From NCBI GenBank assembly GCA_013696315.1, contig JACCYU010000154.1, positions 1 through 35,997 on the forward strand: a stretch of DNA of 35,997 nt, given 5' to 3'. The stretch is from Gammaproteobacteria bacterium. GTDB taxonomy: Bacteria; Pseudomonadota; Gammaproteobacteria; JACCYU01. The notes under the pieces are model-generated. The model had not been told where the DNA came from, did no database searches, and was given only the letters and a program-made list of their open reading frames with translations. Below are positions 10,448-22,661 of the stretch, piece after piece; position 1 is the stretch's first letter; each line of letters opens with the position of its first letter. The translations under genes and the position numbers were made by a program.

Positions 10448-10521
10448 TGGGGGATCGTCTAGTGGTAGGACAGCGGACTCTGACTCCGTTAACCGAGGTT
10501 CGAATCCTCGTCCCCCAGCCA
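10448..10521 (+). tRNA. tRNA-Gln (anticodon CTG)
   Basis: A 74-nt tRNA including encoded CCA. Acceptor arms TGGGGGA and TCCCCCA pair fully with discriminator G. The T-arm is GAGG.TTCGAAT.CCTC. The anticodon stem GCGGA/TCCGT encloses loop CTCTGAC with anticodon CTG at 10480-10482, reading CAG. It closely resembles E. coli glnV. The 3' half, from 10478, is the attachment site of the downstream island, and integration leaves the tRNA intact. Confidence 0.97.
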
Positions 10522-10523
10522 AT
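10478..10523 (+). repeat. attL: 46-bp direct repeat within tRNA-Gln
   Basis: It starts CTCTGACTCC and ends CCAGCCAAT, spanning the anticodon loop to two bases past the CCA end. It is identical to 20953-20998. The flanks diverge immediately on both sides, which defines the core exactly. Confidence 0.93.
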
Positions 10524-10566
10524 AAACACAATAACTTAGAATAATAACCCGCTAAGTGCGTTCCAG

Positions 10567-10586: not shown

Positions 10587-10654
10587 ACAGTTCACAACAA
10601 ATGGTATGATTGCGGGCGTGGTAGCGTGTGCTATCGCTTCGGCAGGTGCTAGTC

Positions 10655-11745
10655 ATGGCCTACGTTCGTGAGCGCGCGGGCAACGATGGGAAGCCCGCTT
10701 ACTGTGTCTACGTCCGCCTCAAGGGCTACCCGCCGCAGACCGCGACTTTCGCCCGCAAGACGGACGCGAAGCGATGGGCGCAGCAAACCGAGGCCGCGAT
10801 CCGCGAGGGGCGGCACTTCAAGAGCGTCGAGGCCAAGCGGCACACATTGGCTGAGCTGATCGAGCGCTACTTGCGGCACGTGGCGCCGCACATGAAACCG
10901 CCGAGGATCGCGAGGCGCATCTACAATGGTGGAAGGCCGAGATCGGCGAGCATGTCTTAGCCGACGTGACGCCTGCGCTGCTCGTCGAAATGCGAGACAC
11001 GCTACTGCGCGGACAAACGCGGCGAGGCAAGCGTAGCGCATCGACAGTCAATCGTTATATGGCCGCGCTTTCGCACGTTTTCACGATGGCCGTGCGGGAG
11101 TGGCAGTGGACAGAAGATAATCCTTTTCGCAAAATATCCACGCTAAAGGAGCCTTCCGGGCGCGTGCGATTCCTGGACGATGACGAACGCGCGCGGTTGC
11201 TTGTCGAGTCTAAGGCGCATAGTGACGAGCTTTACACAATCGTCGTGCTGGCGCTCTCAACTGGGGCGCGGCGCGGCGAACTTCTATCGCTCACTTGGAA
11301 AGACGTCGATCTAGCACGCAGGACACTCGTTCTCCGAGAGACTAAGAACGGTGAGCGGCGATCACTGCCACTGCAAGGCCACGCGTTCGTCTTGGTTCAA
11401 GACATGGCAAAGCTGCGCCGGATCGACACCGACCTGCTGTTTCCCGGCACGAAAGACCCGAAGAGGCCGTTGGCGATCGGCAATATCTTCAACGCGGCAG
11501 TTACGCGCGCCGGCATCGAAGACTTTCACTTTCACGATCTACGGCACAGCGCCGCGTCCTATCTCGCCATGAACGGCGCGACTATACCAGAGATCGCTGG
11601 CGTGCTCGGCCACAAGACCTTGCAGATGGTCAAGCGTTACGCACACCTATCAGATCAGCATACGGCGCAAGTCGTGGCGCGGATGAACACAGCGATATTT
11701 GGCGCCGAAGCTAAGCGGATTCGGGCGCTTGAACAAACCAGATGA
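10655..11745 (+). pseudogene. Island tyrosine integrase, disrupted by a frameshift
   Basis: The first part (10655-10960) starts MAYVRERAG after AGGTG and holds the AP2-like arm-binding domain (PAYCVYVRLKGYPPQTATF). The frame is lost around 10900. The true continuation (DREAHLQWWKAEIGEHVLAD) is in another frame and runs to 11745, with the catalytic domain: Arg in GARRGELLSL, HDLRHSAASYL, LGHKTLQMVKRYAHL with the nucleophile Tyr. Restoring one lost base near CCGCCGAGG would give about 363 residues. It stands next to attL, the normal place for a tRNA-targeting integrase. Unless the shift is a sequencing error or is bypassed, recombination function is lost. Confidence 0.88.
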
Positions 11746-13426: not shown

Positions 13427-14724
13427 GCCGCGCGCACATTAGATTCGGTCGCGAACGCGGCGACCGCATCGTTAGCTGTGAGGGTGATGCGGGTGATCGC
13501 GCACGTCGGATTGAAACGCGCCAACTTGCAACGCCTGGCAGTCGCGCGGTCATGCGCTGCCTGGCTAATGTGTCGCCGGAGCTTATCCGTTGGCTCTGGC
13601 TTGGTCGGATCGCTTGCGGGAAGGTAACTCTCATCGTGGGCGATCCTGGACTTGGTAAGTCTTTCGCGACCCTGGACATCGCCGCGCGCGTCTCCACCGG
13701 CGCGACTTGGCCGGATGGCCGACCAAGTATTTCGGGTTCGGTCATCCTACTTAGTGCTGAAGACGACGCCGCTGACACCATCCGGCCGCGGCTTGATGCT
13801 TTGGGGGCGGATCTCTCCCGTATTCACATCCTGGATGGAGTGCGCAGTGAGGACAGCGAGACCGGCGAGGCTGTCGAGCGCGCGGTCACTCTAGCCGACA
13901 CGAATGTACTGGCCGAAGCTATCGATTCTGTTACCGATGTCCGGCTGGCCATTGTTGATCCGATCAGCGCGTATCTAGGCACCGCCGATTCTCACAAGAA
14001 CGCCGAGATCCGCAGCCTGCTCGCGCCCCTGGCGAAATTCGCTGCTGCTCGCGGAATAGCCGTAGTCGCCGTGTCGCATCTGAACAAGGGCGCCGGCAGC
14101 GCGATTTACAGGATCATGGGGAGTCTCGCCTTCACGGCCGCCGCGCGCGCCGTATGGGTTGTCGCCAAAGACAAAGATGATGAGACACGTCGGCTCCTGT
14201 TGCCCGTGAAGAATAATTTGGCTACGGACTCAGGCGGGCTCGCCTACCGTATAAAGACACACGACAACGCGCCATTCGTAGAATGGGAACCTGATCCCGT
14301 ACTCGTAGACGTGAGTGATGCCCTCGCAAGCCCTCCGGGCGATGAGGAAGGAAGCTTCCGCCAAGAAGCCGCCAAGTGGCTTACCGAAATTCTCGCGCGT
14401 GGGCCAATGACCGTGAAGGCCCTCAAGCACGAGGCTTCTGGCGCGGGATTTTCGTGGCGTACGATAGAAAGGGCTAAAAGCGCGGTCGGTGCGGTCGCGC
14501 GCAAGCAAGAATTCTCCGGCGGCTGGTGGTGTTGGGAGCTTCCGACTATGACCAAGATTGCCATGAAGACCGCCACACATCCCAAGGTGGCGGCCTTCGC
14601 GAAAAAGCGCCACAGAAAGCCGGTTCTGTCGCGACTTTCAGCGAAGACCGCCAAAGCTCACGGAATGGCGGTCTTCACTGCGTCAAGGCGGCTTTGCAGG
14701 AAGCCTGCGTGGGGGTGTCCGTGA
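13423..14724 (+). CDS. RepA-like AAA ATPase / hexameric helicase family
   Basis: 433 aa, starting at the ATG that overlaps the previous stop (ATGA). A RecA-type core has Walker A GDPGLGKS (about 73-80), ILLSAEDD, and Walker B LAIVDPIS, then VVAVSHLNKG as the sensor strand. This is the RepA/RSF1010-like ATPase family (AAA_25) found in plasmids and satellites, where it acts in replication initiation. The C-terminal 100 residues (KWLTEILARGPMTVKALKHEA) look like a winged helix, followed by a basic Lys-rich tail. Its stop overlaps the next small gene (GTGA). Confidence 0.82.
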   Translation: MSRAHIRFGRERGDRIVSCEGDAGDRARRIETRQLATPGSRAVMRCLANVSPELIRWLWLGRIACGKVTLIVGDPGLGKSFATLDIAARVSTGATWPDGRPSISGSVILLSAEDDAADTIRPRLDALGADLSRIHILDGVRSEDSETGEAVERAVTLADTNVLAEAIDSVTDVRLAIVDPISAYLGTADSHKNAEIRSLLAPLAKFAAARGIAVVAVSHLNKGAGSAIYRIMGSLAFTAAARAVWVVAKDKDDETRRLLLPVKNNLATDSGGLAYRIKTHDNAPFVEWEPDPVLVDVSDALASPPGDEEGSFRQEAAKWLTEILARGPMTVKALKHEASGAGFSWRTIERAKSAVGAVARKQEFSGGWWCWELPTMTKIAMKTATHPKVAAFAKKRHRKPVLSRLSAKTAKAHGMAVFTASRRLCRKPAWGCP

Positions 14725-14831
14725 CGCCGGACCAGTTGCGCGCTGTACTAGCCGAAGAGGATATCCATGATATCGAGGGAGGGGTGCTCAGCGTTGAGAA
14801 TCTGCGCGCATTGGCGCGTACGATGCAATAA
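14721..14831 (+). CDS. Small acidic protein, 36 aa
   Basis: GTG start within the GTGA overlap with the ATPase stop, reading TPDQLRAVLAEEDIHDIEGG then LSVENLRALARTMQ. It is acidic and helical. Its TAA shares its last base with the ATG of the next gene. Coupling on both sides supports translation. No function known. Confidence 0.5.
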   Translation: MTPDQLRAVLAEEDIHDIEGGVLSVENLRALARTMQ

Positions 14832-15256
14832 TGCGTGCAGAGCGACCTGAACACACCCGCCAACACACAAACCAACACGCCAACGAACACACTTCCGGAC
14901 ACACCTTTTGCACACGCCTCAACACACGCTTGACACACTACCGAACGCGCCCTAGCGTTTACGTCATGGCCGACATGGAGACTTGGGATCGTCTATGGGA
15001 GATTTTCTATAGTGGAGACCCGGATGATTGTGCTTAGGTCTACCGCGTCGTTGCGGATGGTGCGTTTGTTAATCCATACTTCCTGAAATGTACGCCGACG
15101 AACGATCTACCAGAAAGCCTCCGGGATGATTATGGTGGTGGCGCTTTCCGGATTCTGGTTCGGCGATGCAAGAAGATGATACTAAGCGGCACTTTTGATA
15201 TTGAACCGCTTCCACCGCCACGTGAGCCCAGACGACAGCCGCGATACAGCCTTTGA
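14831..15256 (+). pseudogene. Island backbone gene interrupted by an in-frame amber codon
   Basis: The frame opens at 14831 and runs to a TAG at 15035-15037, then continues in the same frame without another stop to the TGA at 15254-15256. Downstream codons make coherent protein: VYRVVADGAFVNPYFLK, LRDDYGGGAFRILVRR, KKMILSGTFDIEPLPPP. The start may instead be the internal ATG at 14966 (MADMETWDRLWEIFY). The first 40 residues are His/Thr-rich because of an AC-rich DNA tract. This is one original gene with a nonsense mutation, or less likely a suppressed stop. Function unknown. Confidence 0.7.
14848..14940. repeat. AC-rich degenerate ACACRC tract
   Basis: About ten degenerate copies of (A)ACACACNC or AACACGCC over 90 bp, just after the ATPase operon. 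The asymmetric strand composition and location directly after a RepA-like gene suggest iterons or an origin-proximal region. It is alternatively just biased coding sequence. Confidence 0.45.
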
Positions 15257-15374
15257 ATTAATAATCACTAGGTCTGAGGTTTTATTCCTTCGTCCGCACC
15301 AATTAACCCAAAAAAAAGGGCGATGACGCCGCAGGGTGTCTCGCCAGACATAAGCAATTAAATAAGCAACTCGC

Positions 15375-15442
15375 GTGTCGCAACTCACCGAACTCATTGC
15401 GCAGATCAAGGCTAAGAACCCTCAAATGGGGGCGGATCCTGG
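15375..15442 (+). pseudogene. Scar: N-terminal codons of a type III-like methyltransferase
   Basis: GTG at 15375 opens a frame reading SQLTELIAQIKAKNPQMGAD. From memory of the family this is the opening of type III-like Mod proteins, which continue LEREFKALS. Here the match stops at residue 22 and the sequence jumps into the C-terminal part of a restriction/helicase subunit in a different frame. It looks like the left edge of a large internal deletion. Confidence 0.5.
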
Positions 15443-15964
15443 ATGGAAGCCACCCATGCTAGGGAAGCGGATGGAAGTGAAACTCCACTGCCCCGCTACG
15501 AGCACCACATGCTATGCGACGAGTATGGCCAATTCCCTGCGGAGATGAACGACTGGGAAAGAGAGGTGTTGAAGGTCGAGATGACACGCGAAGGTTTTCA
15601 GGCATGGTACCGTAACCCGTCACGTGCTTGTCCGGAGTCTTTAGGCGTCGCTTACAACGGCAATGATCAGGTCAAGCTCGTACGCCCCGACTTCATCTTC
15701 TTCGTAAAGCAATCCGATGGCAGCTTCGCTGCGGACATTGTAGACCCACACGGGACCCACTTCAGCGACGCATTGGCAAAACTTCAAGGCCTAGCCTACT
15801 ACGCTGAGAAACACTCGGAAGTCTATCGTCGGATAGAGGGTATCGCGAAGGCCGGGGACAAACTGCGTGTGTTGGACCTGACTGACTCGTCGGTGCGGAA
15901 GGCGGTTGCCGAGGCTGCGGACGCAAGGAGTCTTTACCAGAGCGAGTTCGCGAGCGACTATTGA
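15443..15964 (+). pseudogene. C-terminal fragment of a Res-like restriction/helicase subunit
   Basis: 173 residues, with coding sense continuing upstream of the first ATG. It holds the PD-(D/E)xK-like end domain of type III-like Res or DEAD-helicase proteins: RPDFIFFVKQSDG, AADIVDPHG, then SDALAKLQGLAYYAE and LRVLDLTDSSVR. The N-terminal helicase (expected 700 residues or more) is missing. Together with the Mod scar at 15375 this indicates a former two-gene R-M or related defence system that lost its middle. A retained stable fragment with nuclease activity is conceivable but unlikely. Confidence 0.7.
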
Positions 15965-16081
15965 GCACTGATTTTACGCAACTAAGTGCTTGACAAGCTC
16001 TCGGGAAGCTGTCCCCGAGGGCCCTACAATTATTACAGGATTCCAAGCGCGCCGGGAGTAAATCTCCAAGAGTGCCTGTTC

Positions 16082-16966
16082 TTACTTACGTCGGCTCTTT
16101 GAGGGCCAGGGCAGAATGCCGTCAAGCTCCTCCAATAGTGGCTCCTCGTTGTCTGCATCGTCATCATGGGTATGCCCGACGCACCTTAAGCTGTCATCGA
16201 ACCAAATGAGTGACAGGCACTGATCCCACTCTCGTACGAGCATCGCCTCCTCGGCTAACAAGTCGTAGTTCTTGACGCCATTCGAGAACCAGATATCTAC
16301 GGGAATTTCATCATAGTCTTCGATCTTCGCCCCCTCTTTGATCAGCTTGTGGGCGACGCTGCTTTGAGGCGCAGGGTTCCCAATCCCGATCCATCCCTTC
16401 ATTTCCCGGAGTAACCTCGACCTTGATGCGTAACGAACCTTACCGTTCTCGATCAAGACAAAAGCGCACGGGACATCGCAGCTGGCGGCGAAGCGGGAGC
16501 CAGTCGAGCTTACGGACGCCTCATATTTGGCCGCCAGTTGCTTAATGGCATCTAGAGATACATCCAGATCATCGATATCCCTCTTAAACATGTCGTACGG
16601 CAAGAGGCATTCAGCCGCAAAGACATCACATAAGATCTCTTCTTTGGGGCGCGACCGATAACTGATGAGATCCGACGTGCTTATATTCTCTCCGTGATGT
16701 TGTGAGGAGAGTCCAAGCACGATATGCGCGATTTCATGCAGCACTGTGAAGCGTTGTCGCTCCTCTCTGTGGTTCCCGTTCACGGTGATGATGTTCTTGC
16801 TACGAAGGGAAAACGTTTGTCCTGATTCTGCGTCATCCAGGTCGTAACATATTTTGATCTTGGCGTTCGCGGCAGCAGCAAGACGCTCGATATCAACCGG
16901 AACGGAATCGATACCCGCGTCCCTTACAAACTGACGTGCCTTCAGGACGGCTGTGAATTCGTCCAA
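16082..16966 (-). CDS. capP: ImmA/IrrE-type metallopeptidase, CapP-like CBASS regulator
   Basis: 294 aa. The zinc motif is HEIAH (residues 77-81), with the third ligand region EEILCDVFAAECLLP (about 109-123). Cys113 sits beside the metal site; from memory, CapP proteins use such a Cys as a switch. The last 150 residues form a sensor-like region ending in an acidic stretch (THDDDADNEEP). The TTG start abuts the stop of the upstream HTH gene, so the pair is one operon. It is divergent from the CBASS operon. In described CapH-CapP pairs, the protease cleaves the HTH repressor on DNA damage or infection and so induces CBASS; that role is inferred here from motif and position. Confidence 0.8.
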   Translation of the reverse strand: MDEFTAVLKARQFVRDAGIDSVPVDIERLAAAANAKIKICYDLDDAESGQTFSLRSKNIITVNGNHREERQRFTVLHEIAHIVLGLSSQHHGENISTSDLISYRSRPKEEILCDVFAAECLLPYDMFKRDIDDLDVSLDAIKQLAAKYEASVSSTGSRFAASCDVPCAFVLIENGKVRYASRSRLLREMKGWIGIGNPAPQSSVAHKLIKEGAKIEDYDEIPVDIWFSNGVKNYDLLAEEAMLVREWDQCLSLIWFDDSLRCVGHTHDDDADNEEPLLEELDGILPWPSKSRRK

Positions 16967-17350
16967 TTAATCGTCCTGCTCTCCGAGAAATGCGTTCAGG
17001 CGATCCGCCTGTCTCCGCCAGTCATCGGGCGTTTCCGGGCGTTTTCCCCGGAAGCTCATCTGCGCCAAGGGTTCAAGAAGCTCTAAAGGCCGATCCTCAT
17101 CCTTGATAAAAACGTCAATGAGCTGCTCGTTCATTGTCTTCCCAACAAGCAAGCGCAGCAGGCGTGCGCGGCGGGAACTAAGTTTCAGAGTGCGCGCGAA
17201 TGATTCGACGACTTCCCCTGATGGGGAGGTCTTCTCACCCTTCTCCAGCCGGTGAATATAGGCGTGGTCAATCTCGCACAATTTTCCGAACTCGCGAAGG
17301 CTCAAGCCGCGCTCTTCACGAAACATTCTTAGGGCGTAGCCAAAAGACAT
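16967..17350 (-). CDS. capH: XRE-family HTH repressor, CapH-like
   Basis: 127 aa from the ATG at 17350, preceded by AGGAG at 5 bases; an in-frame start 6 codons earlier lacks this. The N-terminal XRE HTH (LREFGKLCEIDHAYIHRLEKGEK, about residues 16-40) is followed by a helical extension (SRRARLLRLLVGK) and a C-terminal acidic/basic tail. It pairs with the ImmA/IrrE protease as substrate and repressor, as in CapH-CapP and ImmR-ImmA. It likely binds the GTTGT/ACAAC repeats in its own upstream region and represses both itself and the CBASS operon. Confidence 0.78.
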   Translation of the reverse strand: MSFGYALRMFREERGLSLREFGKLCEIDHAYIHRLEKGEKTSPSGEVVESFARTLKLSSRRARLLRLLVGKTMNEQLIDVFIKDEDRPLELLEPLAQMSFRGKRPETPDDWRRQADRLNAFLGEQDD

Positions 17351-17389
17351 CTGGGCTCCTCTTGACAAAACGGAGAACTATTCTAGTGT

Positions 17390-17539: not shown

Positions 17540-17722
17540 ATGAGCAATAAATCATGGAAACCAGGAGAGAAAGCGCCGCGTTCCGGCCAGTACCAGGTAG
17601 TCAGGCCGCGTGGCGGGAAGGGGCCAGAGCGCACCGTCGTGAAGGACGAACCCTTTCCGCCGACGTTTGGCCGAGGCCATCGGTACATACTCGTTGATCC
17701 CACCAAAACCAAGCGGAGGTGA
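17540..17722 (+). CDS. YjzC-like small protein, first gene of the CBASS operon
   Basis: 60 aa. AGGAG lies 8 bases before the ATG. WKPGEKAPRSGQY at the N terminus, ERTVVKDEPFPPTFG in the middle and a basic end (DPTKTKRR) resemble the small YjzC family known from Bacillus and scattered Proteobacteria; no function is established for it. It is the promoter-proximal gene, its stop sits in the loop of the hairpin that carries the phospholipase ribosome-binding site, and it is conserved in frame. It is not a standard CBASS component. It could be a co-factor, an antitoxin-like brake, or mainly a leader cistron. Confidence 0.75.
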   Translation: MSNKSWKPGEKAPRSGQYQVVRPRGGKGPERTVVKDEPFPPTFGRGHRYILVDPTKTKRR

Positions 17723-17727
17723 CTCCG
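17714..17727 (+). promoter_or_regulatory. Hairpin holding the capV Shine-Dalgarno and upstream stop
   Basis: CGGAG (17714-17718) pairs with CTCCG (17723-17727) around the GNRA-type tetraloop GTGA. The Shine-Dalgarno GGAGGTGA (17715-17722) and the TGA stop of the 60-aa gene (17720-17722) both lie inside it. The ATG follows at 17731. A ribosome terminating on the small gene would melt the stem, so capV translation should depend on translation of the upstream gene. Confidence 0.6.
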
Positions 17728-17730
17728 CTG

Positions 17731-18768
17731 ATGGCCGGCAAAGAAGAATCTGAACAGCCGAAACGCCGCATCCTTTGTATTGATGGCGGCGGCATCCTCG
17801 GTACATTCCCGGCGGCCTTTCTCGCTGGCCTGGAACCGGATGTCGATCGCCCGATCGGTTCATATTTCGATCTGATCGCCGGCACCTCGACCGGCGGCAT
17901 CATCGCCATCGGTCTCGCGATGGGGCTGCGCGCCTCGGAGCTTCTCGATCTCTACGAAAAACGTGGTCCGGAAATCTTCGGCCAAGGGCGTGGGCCGGTC
18001 GCGGACTTCATCTTCGACAAGCTGCGGTTCGCGCGAAGGCTTGTTGTGAACAAGCACGATTCCGGGCCGTTACGATCCGTTCTCGAAGACACGCTCGGGG
18101 GCAAGCGGGTTGGCGACGCCGCAACGCGGCTGCTTATCCCGGCATGGAACCCGGTCGCGCGGTCTGTCTATATCTACAAGACCGCGCATCACGCACGCCT
18201 TCGCAACGATTACAAATGCCTGGCCGTCGATGTCGCGATGGCGACCGCTGCTGCACCGACCTACTTCCGCCAGCACGTCACGCAGCACGCCGTTGGCCTC
18301 ACCGACGGCGGCACATGGGCGAACAACCAGGTCGCGCTCGCCGTGGTGGAAGCGATCACGCTTCTCGGCTGGCCACGCGATTCCCTTCAGGTTCTCAGTC
18401 TGGGTTGCCTGGACGAGACCTATACGATTCGCAAATGGGCCGGGATCGGAACGCTCGGCTCGAAAGTCATCAAGCTGTTCATGGACGGGCAGTCGCACGG
18501 TGCGATGGGGATCGCCAAGCTGCTCACAGGTCACGAGCACGAGCGGACGGCCATTCACCGGATCAATCACCCGGTCCCTTACAACGCCTACAAGATGGAC
18601 GACACGCGCGTCATTCAGGATCTCAAGGGGCTGGGCCATTCCTTCGCACGCGATCGACAACCGGTTCTCGATCCCGTGTTCTTCAGCCATCCGGCCGACG
18701 CGTTCATGCCGGTCTACGCGCTGAATGAAGAGCCGGGTGTGACATCAAGAGAGAGGTTGTCGGCATGA
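17731..18768 (+). CDS. capV: Patatin-like phospholipase, CapV-type CBASS effector
   Basis: 345 aa from the ATG at 17731 (GGAGGTG 9 bases upstream); a GTG at 17719 overlapping the previous stop is the alternative. The patatin fold shows an oxyanion motif DGGGILG (18-24), nucleophile GTSTGG with Ser53, and catalytic Asp in TDGG (Asp192). CapV enzymes are activated by the cyclic dinucleotide or trinucleotide of the partner CD-NTase and degrade membrane phospholipids, killing the infected cell. The oxyanion motif has Leu where DGGGxRG proteins usually have Arg. Its stop overlaps the CD-NTase start by 4 nt (ATGA). Confidence 0.9.
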   Translation: MAGKEESEQPKRRILCIDGGGILGTFPAAFLAGLEPDVDRPIGSYFDLIAGTSTGGIIAIGLAMGLRASELLDLYEKRGPEIFGQGRGPVADFIFDKLRFARRLVVNKHDSGPLRSVLEDTLGGKRVGDAATRLLIPAWNPVARSVYIYKTAHHARLRNDYKCLAVDVAMATAAAPTYFRQHVTQHAVGLTDGGTWANNQVALAVVEAITLLGWPRDSLQVLSLGCLDETYTIRKWAGIGTLGSKVIKLFMDGQSHGAMGIAKLLTGHEHERTAIHRINHPVPYNAYKMDDTRVIQDLKGLGHSFARDRQPVLDPVFFSHPADAFMPVYALNEEPGVTSRERLSA

Positions 18769-19967
18769 CGATTGATATGAAGAAGTATTCGGCGTTCCTC
18801 GAACAGGTCGCAAGCGAGATCGACATCCCGCCCGGCAAGTATCAGGATGCTGTGGACCGCTATCAGGCCGTAGGACGCTGGCTTGAAGAGGGCGAATATC
18901 CCGGATGCCAGGGCGAACTCAGCATCTGCGTACAAGGATCGTTTCGCCTGGGAACGGTCACCCGGCCGATTCGCGATGGAATCGAGGCGTGCTACGACAT
19001 CGACCTCGTGTGCGAGTTGCCGTTGCGCAAGAAAGAGACCACGCCGCAAGCCATCAAGTCCATGGTCGGCGACCGGCTCCGCGAACACGGAACCTACAAG
19101 AAGTTGCTCGATCCCGAAGGCCGGCGCTGCTGGACGCTCGAATACGCCGAGCAGGACGGCGTGGGATTTCATCTGGACGTGCTGCCCGCCGTTCCCGACG
19201 CGCGCGGACTGCTCGACACCGCCGTCGCGATCACGAAGAAGGCGGACACCATCTATTCGTGGTCGGCAAGCAATCCCCGTGGCTACGGGGTGTGGTTCGA
19301 CGGCAAGAACGCCGTGGCGTTCTCCCGGGTGGTCGTCGAGCAGAAGCAGGATATCCGGCGCCGCGCATCCCTGATCTACGCGAGCATCGACATGGTTCCC
19401 GACCAGTTGGTCCGCACGCCGCTCCAGCGTTCGATCCAGCTCATGAAGCGCCACCGCGATCTGCGCTTCAATCATCATGATCGGGTCGACTACGCACCGA
19501 TCTCGATTATCATTACGACGCTCGCCGCGTATCTCTACGGCAACGAGCCGGTTGTGTATTCGGCTCTGTCAGGGATCGTCGGAAAGCTCCAGGCGCATGC
19601 AGCGCTCGTCGAGGGCAAGGCCATCGACCGCTCGCTGGCGGCGATGGGATTGATCCAGAGACGGCCGGATGGCACGTGGTACATCGGCAATCCCGTCAAC
19701 CCGGACGAGAATTTTGCGGACCGCTGGCATGAAGACAACCACGCCCGCGCCCGCGCCTTCTTCGCATGGGTGGATGCGCTCCAGAAGGATCTGCTGAACA
19801 TCCTGGGCGAGACGACTCCGCGTCTGCTCAAGGAGCATCTGGGCCGCGCATTGGGCAAGGCGGCTGTAACGAGGCATCTCGATATCCCGGTTCCGCCCGC
19901 TGCGGCCATCGACACGCCGCCGCGCATTCACGTCGCCAGTCCCGCGAAACCGTGGAGGGAGGCGTGA
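18765..19967 (+). CDS. CD-NTase (cGAS/DncV-like nucleotidyltransferase)
   Basis: 400 aa. The catalytic core is intact: VQGSFRLGT with Gly-Ser at 58-59, DID at 78-80, and the third carboxylate in FHLDVLP (Asp138). The C-terminal helical domain contains TPLQRSIQLMKRHRD and the AHAALVEGKAID region typical of the family. AGAGAGG lies 8 bases before the ATG. The enzyme should make the cyclic oligonucleotide that activates the phospholipase; the nucleotide product cannot be told from sequence. The last residues are Pro-rich and end PWREA, so the C terminus is Ala rather than Gly, which matters if the E2 protein conjugates it. Confidence 0.9.
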   Translation: MTIDMKKYSAFLEQVASEIDIPPGKYQDAVDRYQAVGRWLEEGEYPGCQGELSICVQGSFRLGTVTRPIRDGIEACYDIDLVCELPLRKKETTPQAIKSMVGDRLREHGTYKKLLDPEGRRCWTLEYAEQDGVGFHLDVLPAVPDARGLLDTAVAITKKADTIYSWSASNPRGYGVWFDGKNAVAFSRVVVEQKQDIRRRASLIYASIDMVPDQLVRTPLQRSIQLMKRHRDLRFNHHDRVDYAPISIIITTLAAYLYGNEPVVYSALSGIVGKLQAHAALVEGKAIDRSLAAMGLIQRRPDGTWYIGNPVNPDENFADRWHEDNHARARAFFAWVDALQKDLLNILGETTPRLLKEHLGRALGKAAVTRHLDIPVPPAAAIDTPPRIHVASPAKPWREA

Positions 19968-20695
19968 CGGAGGATTTGCGGCGGCAAATCTCCGAACTCA
20001 TCGCCGTTCACAAGAGACTCATCAACGTGCTCGAACGCGGTACGGAAACCATCGTATCCGGTGCGCTGCCGTTCGAGGCGTCCGCCGACGGATTCGAGAC
20101 GATCGCGGATAGGTTTGAGATCGAACTGGCTATACCAGATGCCTTTCCGGACATGCTTCCGCGCGTAAGGGAAACGGCTGGCAGGATCGAGCGAAGCTAC
20201 CCGCATATTAATGTAGAGGGGACGCTCTGTCTTGCGATTCCGGTTGAACAACGCCGGATTTTCTTCGAGCAGCGCTCTTTGTTGGGATTTGTGAACCGGC
20301 TGGTTATCCCTTATCTATACGGTTACTGCCATTGGAATCAGTGCGGTCGACATCCCTTCGATGAGGAAAAGCACGGCGCCGAAGGAATTGTTCAATACTA
20401 CATCGGAAAGCTGCACCTGGCGGATGAACTAGCGGTGTTGGGCGTCGTTTGCTTCCTTTATGAGCACGGTTACCGGGGCCATCATCCCTGTCCGTGCGGG
20501 AGCGGGCTGAAGGTCCGGAGCTGTCATGCTTCCGCGCTGCGTAGTCTTGATCAACATCATACTTCACAAACCATTTGTCACGATTTCTTGTGCGTGTTTG
20601 AAGTCTGCTTCAGTAGGTTTCAGGCTGGTCAGTTCTCCTTCCCAAGACCGCTCAGGAATCAGATCTGTCGCATCCTTAACAAGATTAAAGGCTAG
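19964..20695 (+). CDS. E2-like CBASS accessory protein with SEC-C-type motif
   Basis: 243 aa from the GTG that overlaps the CD-NTase stop by 4 nt. The E2-like core has an FEIELAIPDAFPD strand and HINVEGTLCLAIP, where Cys89 matches the catalytic Cys of bacterial E2 proteins. After a helical part (DELAVLGVVCFLYEHGYRG) comes HPCPCGSGLKVRSCH (175-188), a SEC-C-type zinc motif. No E1 or JAB gene follows, so this is the E2-only (type II-short) layout, where E2 is thought to modify or hold the CD-NTase. The 55 residues after the SEC-C motif are Cys/Phe-rich and unlike the rest; the true end is probably near residue 195, with a junction into foreign sequence. Confidence 0.8.
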   Translation: MTEDLRRQISELIAVHKRLINVLERGTETIVSGALPFEASADGFETIADRFEIELAIPDAFPDMLPRVRETAGRIERSYPHINVEGTLCLAIPVEQRRIFFEQRSLLGFVNRLVIPYLYGYCHWNQCGRHPFDEEKHGAEGIVQYYIGKLHLADELAVLGVVCFLYEHGYRGHHPCPCGSGLKVRSCHASALRSLDQHHTSQTICHDFLCVFEVCFSRFQAGQFSFPRPLRNQICRILNKIKG

Positions 20696-20834: not shown

Positions 20835-20952
20835 GTACGCAACAAGAAAAGGCCGCAAACCACAAAAGGGCGCAAGCATGCCTGCGTACTAAGCCGTTGA
20901 ATACATTGTTATCATCTGTGGTAAGTTGTTGTAAATAGTGGTAAAAGGCCGT

Positions 20953-20998
20953 CTCTGACTCCGTTAACCGAGGTTCGAATCCTCGTCCCCCAGCCAAT
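20953..20998 (+). repeat. attR: 46-bp copy of the tRNA-Gln 3' half
   Basis: Identical to 10478-10523. It lacks the 5' half of the tRNA, so it is not a functional tRNA gene. It marks the right border of the island. Confidence 0.93.
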
Positions 20999-21044
20999 TA
21001 AATCAATAGCTTGCCTGTACCCTCGCGACGTGCATCATCATAGT

Positions 21045-21063: not shown

Positions 21064-21855
21064 TTAGGGCTTGAGATAAAAAGCGGCATGGAGCGCCGCG
21101 TTTAATTTGCTGGCGGCTTCCTCTTGAATGCCTGGCAACACATGCGAGTAGGTGTCCAAGGTGATGGCAATTGTTGAGTGGCCCAGGCGCTCGGAGACAA
21201 CCTTGGGATGGACACCTTGACGTAGCAATTGCGTGGCGTGCGAATGTCTTAAGTCATGAAGGCGTAGAGTCTGCAAGCCTGCTTTTCTAACCAGCTTGCG
21301 ATAAGCCATCGTGAGCGCGTTGGGCGGCCATACACTGCCATCCTCCCGCGCGAAAACGAGGCCCTGATCCTTATACGCGGGCCCGATCATCAAACGCGCC
21401 TTTTTCTGCTCGATATCGTGGACACGTAGAGCATCCATCGTCATGGTAAGTAGGGCGATGGTGCGCTGACTCTTTTTCGTTTTGGGTTTCTTGAACTGGA
21501 TACACCCGCGGGTTTGTTCGACCGTTTGGCGGACGGTCAACATTGCGCGTACTAGATCTACATCCTGCCAGCGCACAGCTAGAAGCTCTCCTCGCCGCAG
21601 ACCAGTCGTGACCGCGACCAACAACGGCACGTAGAGGCGCGTTCCTCTCGCCAGATCCAAGAGTATCCCCGTCTCGCGTTCATCTATCGCCCGCATCTCT
21701 CGATGCTCCGGGCGCGGAGTCTCGACGGCATCGGCCGAATTCCGTACAACGAGACGCCACTTTACCGCCGTCTTAAGTGCGAGCTTTAGTACCCGGTGGT
21801 GCTGCAGCAAAGTCTTTTCCGAACGCCGGCCGAGCTTTGGCATAGTGCCCCCCAT
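21064..21855 (-). pseudogene. Second tyrosine integrase, N-terminal domain missing
   Basis: 263 codons. They hold the second half of the core-binding domain and a full catalytic domain: TTGLRRGELLAVRW, LHDLRHSHATQLLRQG, ERLGHSTIAITLDTYSHVLPG with the Tyr. The arm-binding and early core-binding regions, about 110-120 residues in relatives, are absent; the frame starts at MGGTMPKLGRRSEKT. Its 3' end points at attR, so it belongs to another element that used the same tRNA-Gln site. The start is 5 bp from the Fic fragment, which is also cut at its N terminus. Confidence 0.8.
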
Positions 21856-21860
21856 TTAGT

Positions 21861-22661
21861 CGCAAGTTACTGCTCGAACTGCATACGGTATTGCTCAAGA
21901 GTGGGCGCGGCCAGGACAAAGAGCCAGGACGCATTCGTATAGAGCAAAATTGGATAGGAGTTCACGGACGTCCAATCGAAGAAGCCTTTCATGTACCGCC
22001 AGAAGCACATCTCCTCCCGCAATTTATTGATAACTGGCTGGAATACTATCGCGGAGAATCGCCTGATCCCTTGGTGCAGCTTGCGGTAATTCACGCACAG
22101 TTCGAAATTTTGCATCCATTCATGGATGGCAATGGCCGCATAGGCCGACTGCTTGTCCCGCTGTTCTTGTACGAAAAGCGCATTCTGTCTGAGCCAGTAT
22201 TCTATCTTTCCGCCTATCTTGAAGCGCATCGGGACGAGTATGAGCAGGGGCTACGGGTGCTGTCAGGCCTAGACAGCTGGAATCAGTGGATACTATTCTT
22301 TCTGCGGGCTATCGAGTCGCAGGCCGAGGAGAATGCGGCGAAGGCGCGAGATATACAAACATTGTATGAATCGCTAAAGCGGACAATATTGGATCTCACG
22401 CGGTCACAGTACGCCGTCCCATTGCTGGACGCTATGTTCGCCAAACCCATATTTCGCAGCTCCGAGCTATTCGATCGACCGGAGATGCCGAGCCAGCCCG
22501 CGGTAACTCATATGCTGAACCAGCTTAAGGAAGCTGGTGTGCTTACTTTGGTGCGCGAAGCCGCCGGCCGCCGCCCTCAAGTTTTAATGCTTGAAAAACT
22601 ATTGAGTATTGCCGAAGGAAGAGAAGTGCGCCTGCCCGCGGTCGCCCAAGTGCCTGCCTAA
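21861..22661 (+). pseudogene. Fic-domain protein, N-terminally truncated
   Basis: The frame is open from about 21861, with the first usable start a TTG at 21891. The Fic motif HPFMDGNGRIGR is complete, with the preceding EILHPF helix, and is followed by a C-terminal winged-helix-like part (PAVTHMLNQLKEAGVLTLVRE). Fic proteins transfer AMP to target proteins. Relatives have about 100 more N-terminal residues with an inhibitory helix ahead of GRGQDKEPG; here that part is gone. It is divergent from the truncated integrase. An active fragment is possible if translated, but a remnant is more likely. The 211 bp after it hold no gene I can support. Confidence 0.78.

What the first reader, a model, noticed from the sequence alone, without database searches (positions are those of the whole stretch)
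15375..15964. Deletion scar of a type III-like restriction-modification system
The opening residues of a Mod-like protein are fused out of frame to the C-terminal nuclease domain of a Res-like protein. It implies an older defence system in the same island slot before or alongside CBASS.
Basis: partly seen in the sequence, partly recalled or inferred. Interest (0 to 1): 0.5.

Follow-up and report, generated by a model that had tools for sequence, protein, structure and literature searches.

The report
Deletion scar of type III restriction system
A two-gene bacterial anti-virus system once sat here beside another one that still looks whole, but a deletion of about four thousand bases removed nearly all of it and left only the start of its first gene and the intact tail domain of its second; it is an ordinary genetic scar, unusually easy to read.

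Summary
Window 15375-15437 encodes the first 21 codons of a type III methyltransferase (Mod). From 15437/15440 to 15961 another frame encodes the last about 175 residues of the partner Res, 69-70% identical to the nearest relatives. In 69 relatives with both ends these points lie 3.7-5.3 kb apart (median 4128 bp), so about 4.1 kb is missing. It was not found elsewhere in the assembly; only a diverged type III pair lies on another contig. Of 103 related loci, 82 hold a long Res frame, 80 of them with Mod upstream. None is a stand-alone 173-codon gene and none shares this junction; one (L039) is an independent, in-frame Mod-Res fusion. Scar and CBASS lie inside one 10.5-kb island bounded by a duplicated tRNA-Gln end. 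The leftover domain models confidently, with a fold resembling PD-(D/E)XK nucleases, and 0 of 40 conserved positions have changed (true of 50 of 100 sequences). Without selection this allows only about 3% neutral change since the deletion: the scar is young, or the domain is still kept. Best reading: an inert, fairly recent deletion remnant. Low interest.

The parts
15375..15437 (+). First 21 codons of a type III DNA methyltransferase (Mod), GTG start
   Evidence: PADLOC MTase_III 1-22/709, E 3.2e-5; tblastn of intact Mod; HMM of 67 Mod N-termini, E 2.3e-10
15435..15442 (+). Deletion junction: the last Mod codon ends at 15437, Res homology starts at 15437 or 15440; about 4.1 kb missing
   Evidence: tblastn end points and distances in 69 relatives with both ends, 3690-5308 bp, median 4128; sequences side by side
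15443..15964 (+). 173-codon ORF: C-terminal domain of type III Res, starting at an internal methionine of Res
   Evidence: 52-70% identity to the 80 Res tails kept; 51-55% for the 20 listed of 38 plasmid records; model pLDDT 93
15375..15548 (+). Mod reading frame that runs out of frame into Res DNA (57 codons, then stop)
   Evidence: ORF list
10448..10521 (+). tRNA-Gln (CTG), the integration site
   Evidence: ARAGORN; Rfam tRNA
10473..10537 (+). attL-like direct repeat (3' part of tRNA-Gln and following bases)
   Evidence: 65-nt direct repeat, 91% identical, spacing 10475
20948..21012 (+). attR-like direct repeat, right end of the island
10966..11745 (+). Catalytic part of the island's tyrosine integrase; its N-terminal part lies upstream in another frame
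   Evidence: Pfam Phage_integrase E 2.3e-32; frames compared with the relative in L053
13390..14724 (+). AAA_25 ATPase of the island backbone
   Evidence: Pfam AAA_25 E 8e-34
16082..16966 (-). CBASS-associated CapP protease
   Evidence: PADLOC capP E 1.2e-53
16967..17368 (-). CBASS-associated CapH regulator
   Evidence: PADLOC capH E 5.5e-14
17719..18768 (+). CBASS patatin-like phospholipase effector
   Evidence: NCBIfam CBASS_lipase E 7.3e-65, above cut-off
18765..19967 (+). CBASS cyclase
   Evidence: PADLOC Cyclase E 7.5e-111
19766..20695 (+). CBASS E2-like protein (family match starts at residue 68, so the true start is probably further in)
   Evidence: PADLOC E2 E 1.1e-70

Best explanation
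The stretch is what a deletion of about 4.1 kb left of a complete type III restriction-modification operon (mod, then res). One break fell just after mod codon 21, the other about 175 codons before the end of res, and the ends were joined with little or no shared sequence. This removed nearly the whole methyltransferase and the helicase motor, so neither modification nor restriction by this locus can remain. The leftover C-terminal Res domain has an open frame from an internal methionine but is most likely inert. Shown: both halves, their order, the junction, and that the middle part was not found in the assembly. Inferred: that it was a single event, its mechanism (illegitimate joining), and the lack of function.
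For: Mod N-terminus and Res C-terminus match at the expected ends. Of 82 relatives with a long Res frame, 80 have Mod upstream and the other two reach a contig end. The distance between the two junction points in 69 relatives with both ends is 3690-5308 bp, median 4128. The missing part was not found elsewhere in the own assembly: full Mod and Res queries find only this scar, a diverged pair at C102 (46% and 36% identical) and one weak Mod hit on C169 (E 0.1). Damaged Res copies occur elsewhere too: 11 of 103 loci are truncated or interrupted, among them E. coli yagJ and a Salmonella plasmid copy, each next to IS1. L039 joins Mod (about residues 131-480) to Res (about 403-864) in one open frame, an independent loss between mod and res at other break points. 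The island shows other decay: the integrase is split over two frames.
Against: The Res domain has no stop and 0 of 40 conserved positions changed, more than expected for an old dead piece. The genome is a draft of 280 contigs without read data here, so a false join in assembly cannot be fully excluded. In 71 loci with a Mod start on the same strand the nearest start is 3759 bp from the Res tail, so this junction is seen only once.
Confidence: 0.93

Rival explanations
1. The 173-aa product is kept as a stand-alone nuclease domain: after the deletion, translation starts at the internal methionine and the intact PD-(D/E)XK-like fold acts alone or with CBASS.
For: The fragment models as a complete domain (pLDDT 93); 0 of 40 conserved positions changed; in 3000 neutral simulations per level, only 5% at 3% divergence and 0.6% at 5% divergence kept both the open frame and all 40 positions.
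Against: A young deletion explains the same, and 50 of 100 aligned sequences also show 0 changes. No stand-alone relative of this length among 103 loci. No sigma-70-like promoter match in 14700-16300, where shuffles give 1.1 on average. No CBASS gene in the flanks held for the other Res copies fetched. The motor and the Mod partner are gone; for EcoP1/EcoP15 it was postulated that Mod helps Res to fold and protects it (PMC3874151, passages seen).
Confidence: 0.06
2. Assembly artefact: the contig wrongly joins two parts of an intact mod-res locus.
For: Draft genome of 280 contigs; no reads available here.
Against: The missing 4.1 kb was found on no other contig of an assembly that is 96% complete; the only other type III pair is too diverged (46%, 36%) to be the source; the join lies inside a contig with island genes on both sides.
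Confidence: 0.03
3. A small native gene, unrelated to type III systems, that happens to resemble Res.
For: Open frame of 173 codons with its own ATG.
Against: 69-70% identity to the two nearest Res C-termini over 171 residues, and a Mod N-terminus directly upstream.
Confidence: 0.01

Closest known systems
Type III restriction-modification pair with Mod of PADLOC family PDLC03645 and an about 860-aa DEAD/DEAH-box Res (e.g. L026, L028)
   Same: Mod start (16 of 21 residues as in L028) and Res tail (64-70% identity to L025-L028) in the same order
   Different: Here about 4.1 kb between the two is missing; no methyltransferase core or helicase is left
Mod-Res fusion frame in L039 (Thiosulfatihalobacter marinus)
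   Same: Also made by loss of sequence between mod and res
   Different: In frame; keeps the methyltransferase core (Pfam N6_N4_Mtase E 3.6e-8) and the second half of Res; other break points
E. coli K-12 YagJ (CP4-6 prophage; prophage name recalled)
   Same: Also a C-terminal piece of the same Res family, 52% identical to the window ORF
   Different: 243 aa, with IS1 on its 5' side; no Mod start fused to it
EcoP1/EcoP15 type III systems
   Same: Adjacent mod and res genes of about 2.2 and 2.8 kb (PMC3874151, passages seen)
   Different: One Res of the present family (L028) finds no solved structure by sequence at E 0.01, so it is far from the Res proteins solved so far

Membership tests
Type III restriction-modification system | mod gene for an N6-type DNA methyltransferase | tested here: not met
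   Only codons 1-21 remain; the full relative L028 Mod matches MTase_III E 1.6e-284
Type III restriction-modification system | res gene with ResIII/DEAD helicase motor | tested here: not met
   Helicase part not found in the window; present in relative L028 (PF04851 E 2.3e-10)
Type III restriction-modification system | C-terminal domain of Res | tested here: met
   Res C-terminus at 15437-15961, 69-70% identity to the closest relatives
Type III restriction-modification system | mod directly upstream of res on the same strand | tested here: met
   Remnants in that order; 80 of 82 relatives with a long Res frame have Mod upstream
Type III restriction-modification system | Restriction and methylation activity | not testable with these tools
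   Not expected, as motor and methyltransferase are gone
PD-(D/E)XK nuclease superfamily (C-terminal domain) | Core fold of the restriction-endonuclease-like superfamily | tested here: inconclusive
   Top rows are RecU, Hjc, TnsA: VIA-align Z up to 7.5, rmsd 4.0, 117 aligned; Foldseek best E 6.5e-3, TM-scores about 0.4. Consistent, but Z is under 8
PD-(D/E)XK nuclease superfamily (C-terminal domain) | PD ... (D/E)xK catalytic residues (motif recalled) | tested here: inconclusive
   P82-D83 in 64 of 64 rows and D98 in 63 of 64, but position 100 is V or I in all 64; 113 in the next helix is K in 62 and R in 2 of 64, a possible moved lysine
Stand-alone gene family | Same short gene recurring without Mod-Res | tested here: not met
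   0 of 103 loci

The most novel reading that the evidence does not exclude
The deletion freed a complete PD-(D/E)XK-like domain that is now kept by selection as a small separate nuclease inside a CBASS island: a defence system reduced to its cutting domain and taken over by its neighbour.
Probability: 0.05. Interest if true: 0.45.

Novelty: new member of a known kind. Interest (0 to 1): 0.14.

Why it matters
It shows turnover of defence genes inside one small tRNA-integrated island: type III reduced to a scar, CBASS apparently whole. The type III family is a known one, and loss of such systems by deletion is, to my knowledge, ordinary. Side results: E. coli K-12 yagJ, annotated only as 'protein YagJ', is a tail piece of the same Res family, and L039 is an independent in-frame Mod-Res fusion.

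Tried and rejected
Searching with the single 173-aa sequence gave no relative in genome contigs or viral contigs; the alignment A2 gave the best 80 of 217 and 10 loci. A DNA search in plasmids gave none. Only two weak phage records match (31.7-32.6%).

Related islands were sought through the AAA_25 ATPase: 7 viral contigs (L125-L131) and 6 of the 11 other places found in 369 class genomes (L144-L149, 15-16.5 kb each; the other 5 places were not looked at with flanks). None of these 13 shows type III genes at E 1e-3.

The empty site could not be seen: in the same-genus genome G001 the pieces matching the two sides lie on different contigs. dN/dS of the window against its three nearest relatives could not be given, as synonymous sites are saturated (pS 0.76-0.80). 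Pfam GH-E (E 0.007, below cut-off) and an obscurin-like PDB match (E 0.046) were taken as chance. The 75% repeat between 15355-15378 and the bases after attR was taken as chance. A junction repeat was looked for: at most about 1-4 shared bases can be inferred, as the ancestral sequence is unknown. Of two paper searches on yagJ, one held no paper and one listed 8, none on its origin by title or abstract start; the listings show none on this junction. Beyond listings I saw only passages of PMC12707154 and PMC3874151.

Rows dropped and recounts: the 103 loci hold three pairs with identical Res tails (L049/L051, L061/L019, L101/L003), so 100 distinct tails. One search reported 83 long frames, 81 with Mod; on recheck one of them, L039, is a Mod-Res fusion rather than a full Res, which leaves 82 and 80. 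L116 was read on the wrong strand by my script (866-codon frame) and counts among the 20 short rows; eight of those 20 reach a contig or locus end; 11 are truncated or interrupted. One search left out L108, L113, L114 and L116. One search scanned 9 of the 11 damaged loci on both strands; the other two (L041, L065) hold a full-length Mod match; one search scanned the + strand of all 103.

Full report
What is there. Window 15375-15437 is the start of a type III methyltransferase gene. The frame from the GTG at 15375 matches PADLOC MTase_III at positions 1-22 of 709 (E 3.2e-5). An HMM built from 67 Mod N-termini hits it over positions 1-21 (E 2.3e-10). After codon 21 the window departs from those 67: position 22 is L or I in all and P here, position 25 is E in all and K here. 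From 15437 or 15440 on, a different frame matches the C-terminus of the partner Res protein up to 15961 (best E 3e-75). The closest Res tails are 70% (L025), 69% (L026), 65% (L028) and 64% (L027) identical. The 173-codon ORF starts at a methionine that many relatives also have inside Res.

Size of the loss. In 69 relatives with a Mod start and a long Res frame the two points lie 3690-5308 bp apart, median 4128. The junction shows no long repeat; relatives suggest at most a few shared bases, which fits illegitimate joining but does not prove it.

Is it a gene in its own right? I examined 103 related loci from genome, viral and plasmid collections (100 distinct Res tails). 82 hold a long Res frame of 780 or more codons; 80 of them have Mod upstream and the other two reach a contig end. 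One further locus, L039, is an in-frame fusion of Mod (about residues 131-480) and Res (about 403-864) in one frame of 877 codons. Of the 20 short ones, eight reach a contig or locus end, one (L116) was misread by my script and is long, and 11 are truncated or interrupted. The sample leans to loci that keep the Res tail, since that was the query. None is a stand-alone 173-codon gene. None has a Mod start close to the Res tail: 71 Mod starts found on the + strand of the 103 loci lie 3759-5377 bp away. On both strands of 9 of the 11 damaged loci the Mod HMM gives only one weak opposite-strand hit (E 0.34). At E 1e-20 the Res tail is rare among relatives: 3 of 369 genomes of the class and 5 of 398 in a phylum draw, the window's own genome counted in both.

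Missing part. In the own genome a full Mod query (E up to 1) finds a diverged Mod at C102 (46%), this scar (E 0.058), and one weak hit on C169 (E 0.1). A full Res query finds the C102 Res (36%) and this scar. C102 holds an apparently complete but different type III pair, in open frames of 825 and 848 codons. So the deleted segment is not merely misplaced within the assembly.

What the leftover is. AlphaFold2 with 64 sequences gives mean pLDDT 93 and pTM 0.86. The best structural rows are RecU, Hjc and TnsA (VIA-align Z up to 7.5, rmsd 4.0, 117 aligned; Foldseek best E 6.5e-3). These belong, from my knowledge, to the PD-(D/E)XK fold; Z under 8 is modest. P82 and D83 are invariant in 64 rows and D98 is D in 63; the usual lysine position is V or I in all 64, while 113 in the next helix is K in 62 and R in 2. 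In three full Res proteins the best stretches matched by PADLOC REase_III models lie in the helicase part, within residues 198-546, not in this domain.

Is it kept? 0 of 40 strongly conserved positions have changed; the median in intact relatives is 1, and 50 of 100 aligned sequences, truncated ones among them, also show 0, so this is normal for a working copy rather than special. Its terminal branch (0.22) is longer than the median (0.11) but 22 of 100 are longer still. In 3000 neutral simulations per level, an open frame plus all 40 positions survives in 36% at 1% divergence, 5% at 3% and 0.6% at 5%. So without selection the deletion must be young. The Mod start has Q at position 3 where 67 of 67 relatives have R, one change at an otherwise fixed place. 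Synonymous sites are saturated against the nearest relatives, so no dN/dS could be given.

Setting. A tRNA-Gln lies at 10448-10521, and its 3' part is repeated at 20948-21012 (65 nt, 91%). Between lie an integrase, an AAA_25 ATPase, the scar, and a CBASS with CapH, CapP, phospholipase, cyclase and E2 by family matches; that the CBASS works was not tested. The integrase is itself split over two frames, whereas the relative in L053 matches both parts in one frame, so the island may no longer move. No CBASS gene lies in the flanks held for the other Res copies fetched, and none of 13 loci with a related ATPase carries type III genes. The pairing with CBASS therefore looks incidental, and the order of arrival is open.

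Verdict. It is an ordinary deletion remnant of a known kind of system, with a small chance that the leftover domain still does something.

Noticed in passing
L039 3889-6519: Independent in-frame fusion of Mod (about residues 131-480) with the second half of Res (about 403-864) in one open frame of 877 codons; it may be a remnant or a working fusion.
   Followed up: partly
window 10600-11745: The island's integrase is split: its N-terminal part and its catalytic part lie in different frames compared with the relative in L053, so the island may be immobile.
   Followed up: partly
L004 5788-6519: E. coli K-12 yagJ is a tail piece of the same Res family with IS1 on its 5' side; 379 of 5426 E. coli genomes hold at least 80% of it, and one listed relative with 93% identity is annotated as a helicase.
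   Followed up: partly
G000 contig C102, 5942-10923 (L023): A second, apparently complete but diverged type III Mod-Res pair in the same genome.
   Followed up: partly
window 14966-15256: Small ORF just upstream of the scar, interrupted by an in-frame TAG; no relative found in the loci searched.
   Followed up: partly
window 21064-22661: A second tyrosine integrase (minus strand) and a Fic protein just outside the right att repeat, perhaps another element; G001 contig C142 has a similar integrase.
   Followed up: no
L146 5282-13684: A locus with a related AAA_25 ATPase and integrase carries phage capsid and minor tail genes, like a phage satellite.
   Followed up: no
window 15443-15961 (residues 82-113 of the ORF; alignment A3): The nuclease-like Res domain of this family lacks lysine at the usual PD-(D/E)XK place in all 64 rows but has K or R at 113 in all 64; the best PADLOC REase_III stretches in three Res proteins do not reach this domain.
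   Followed up: partly
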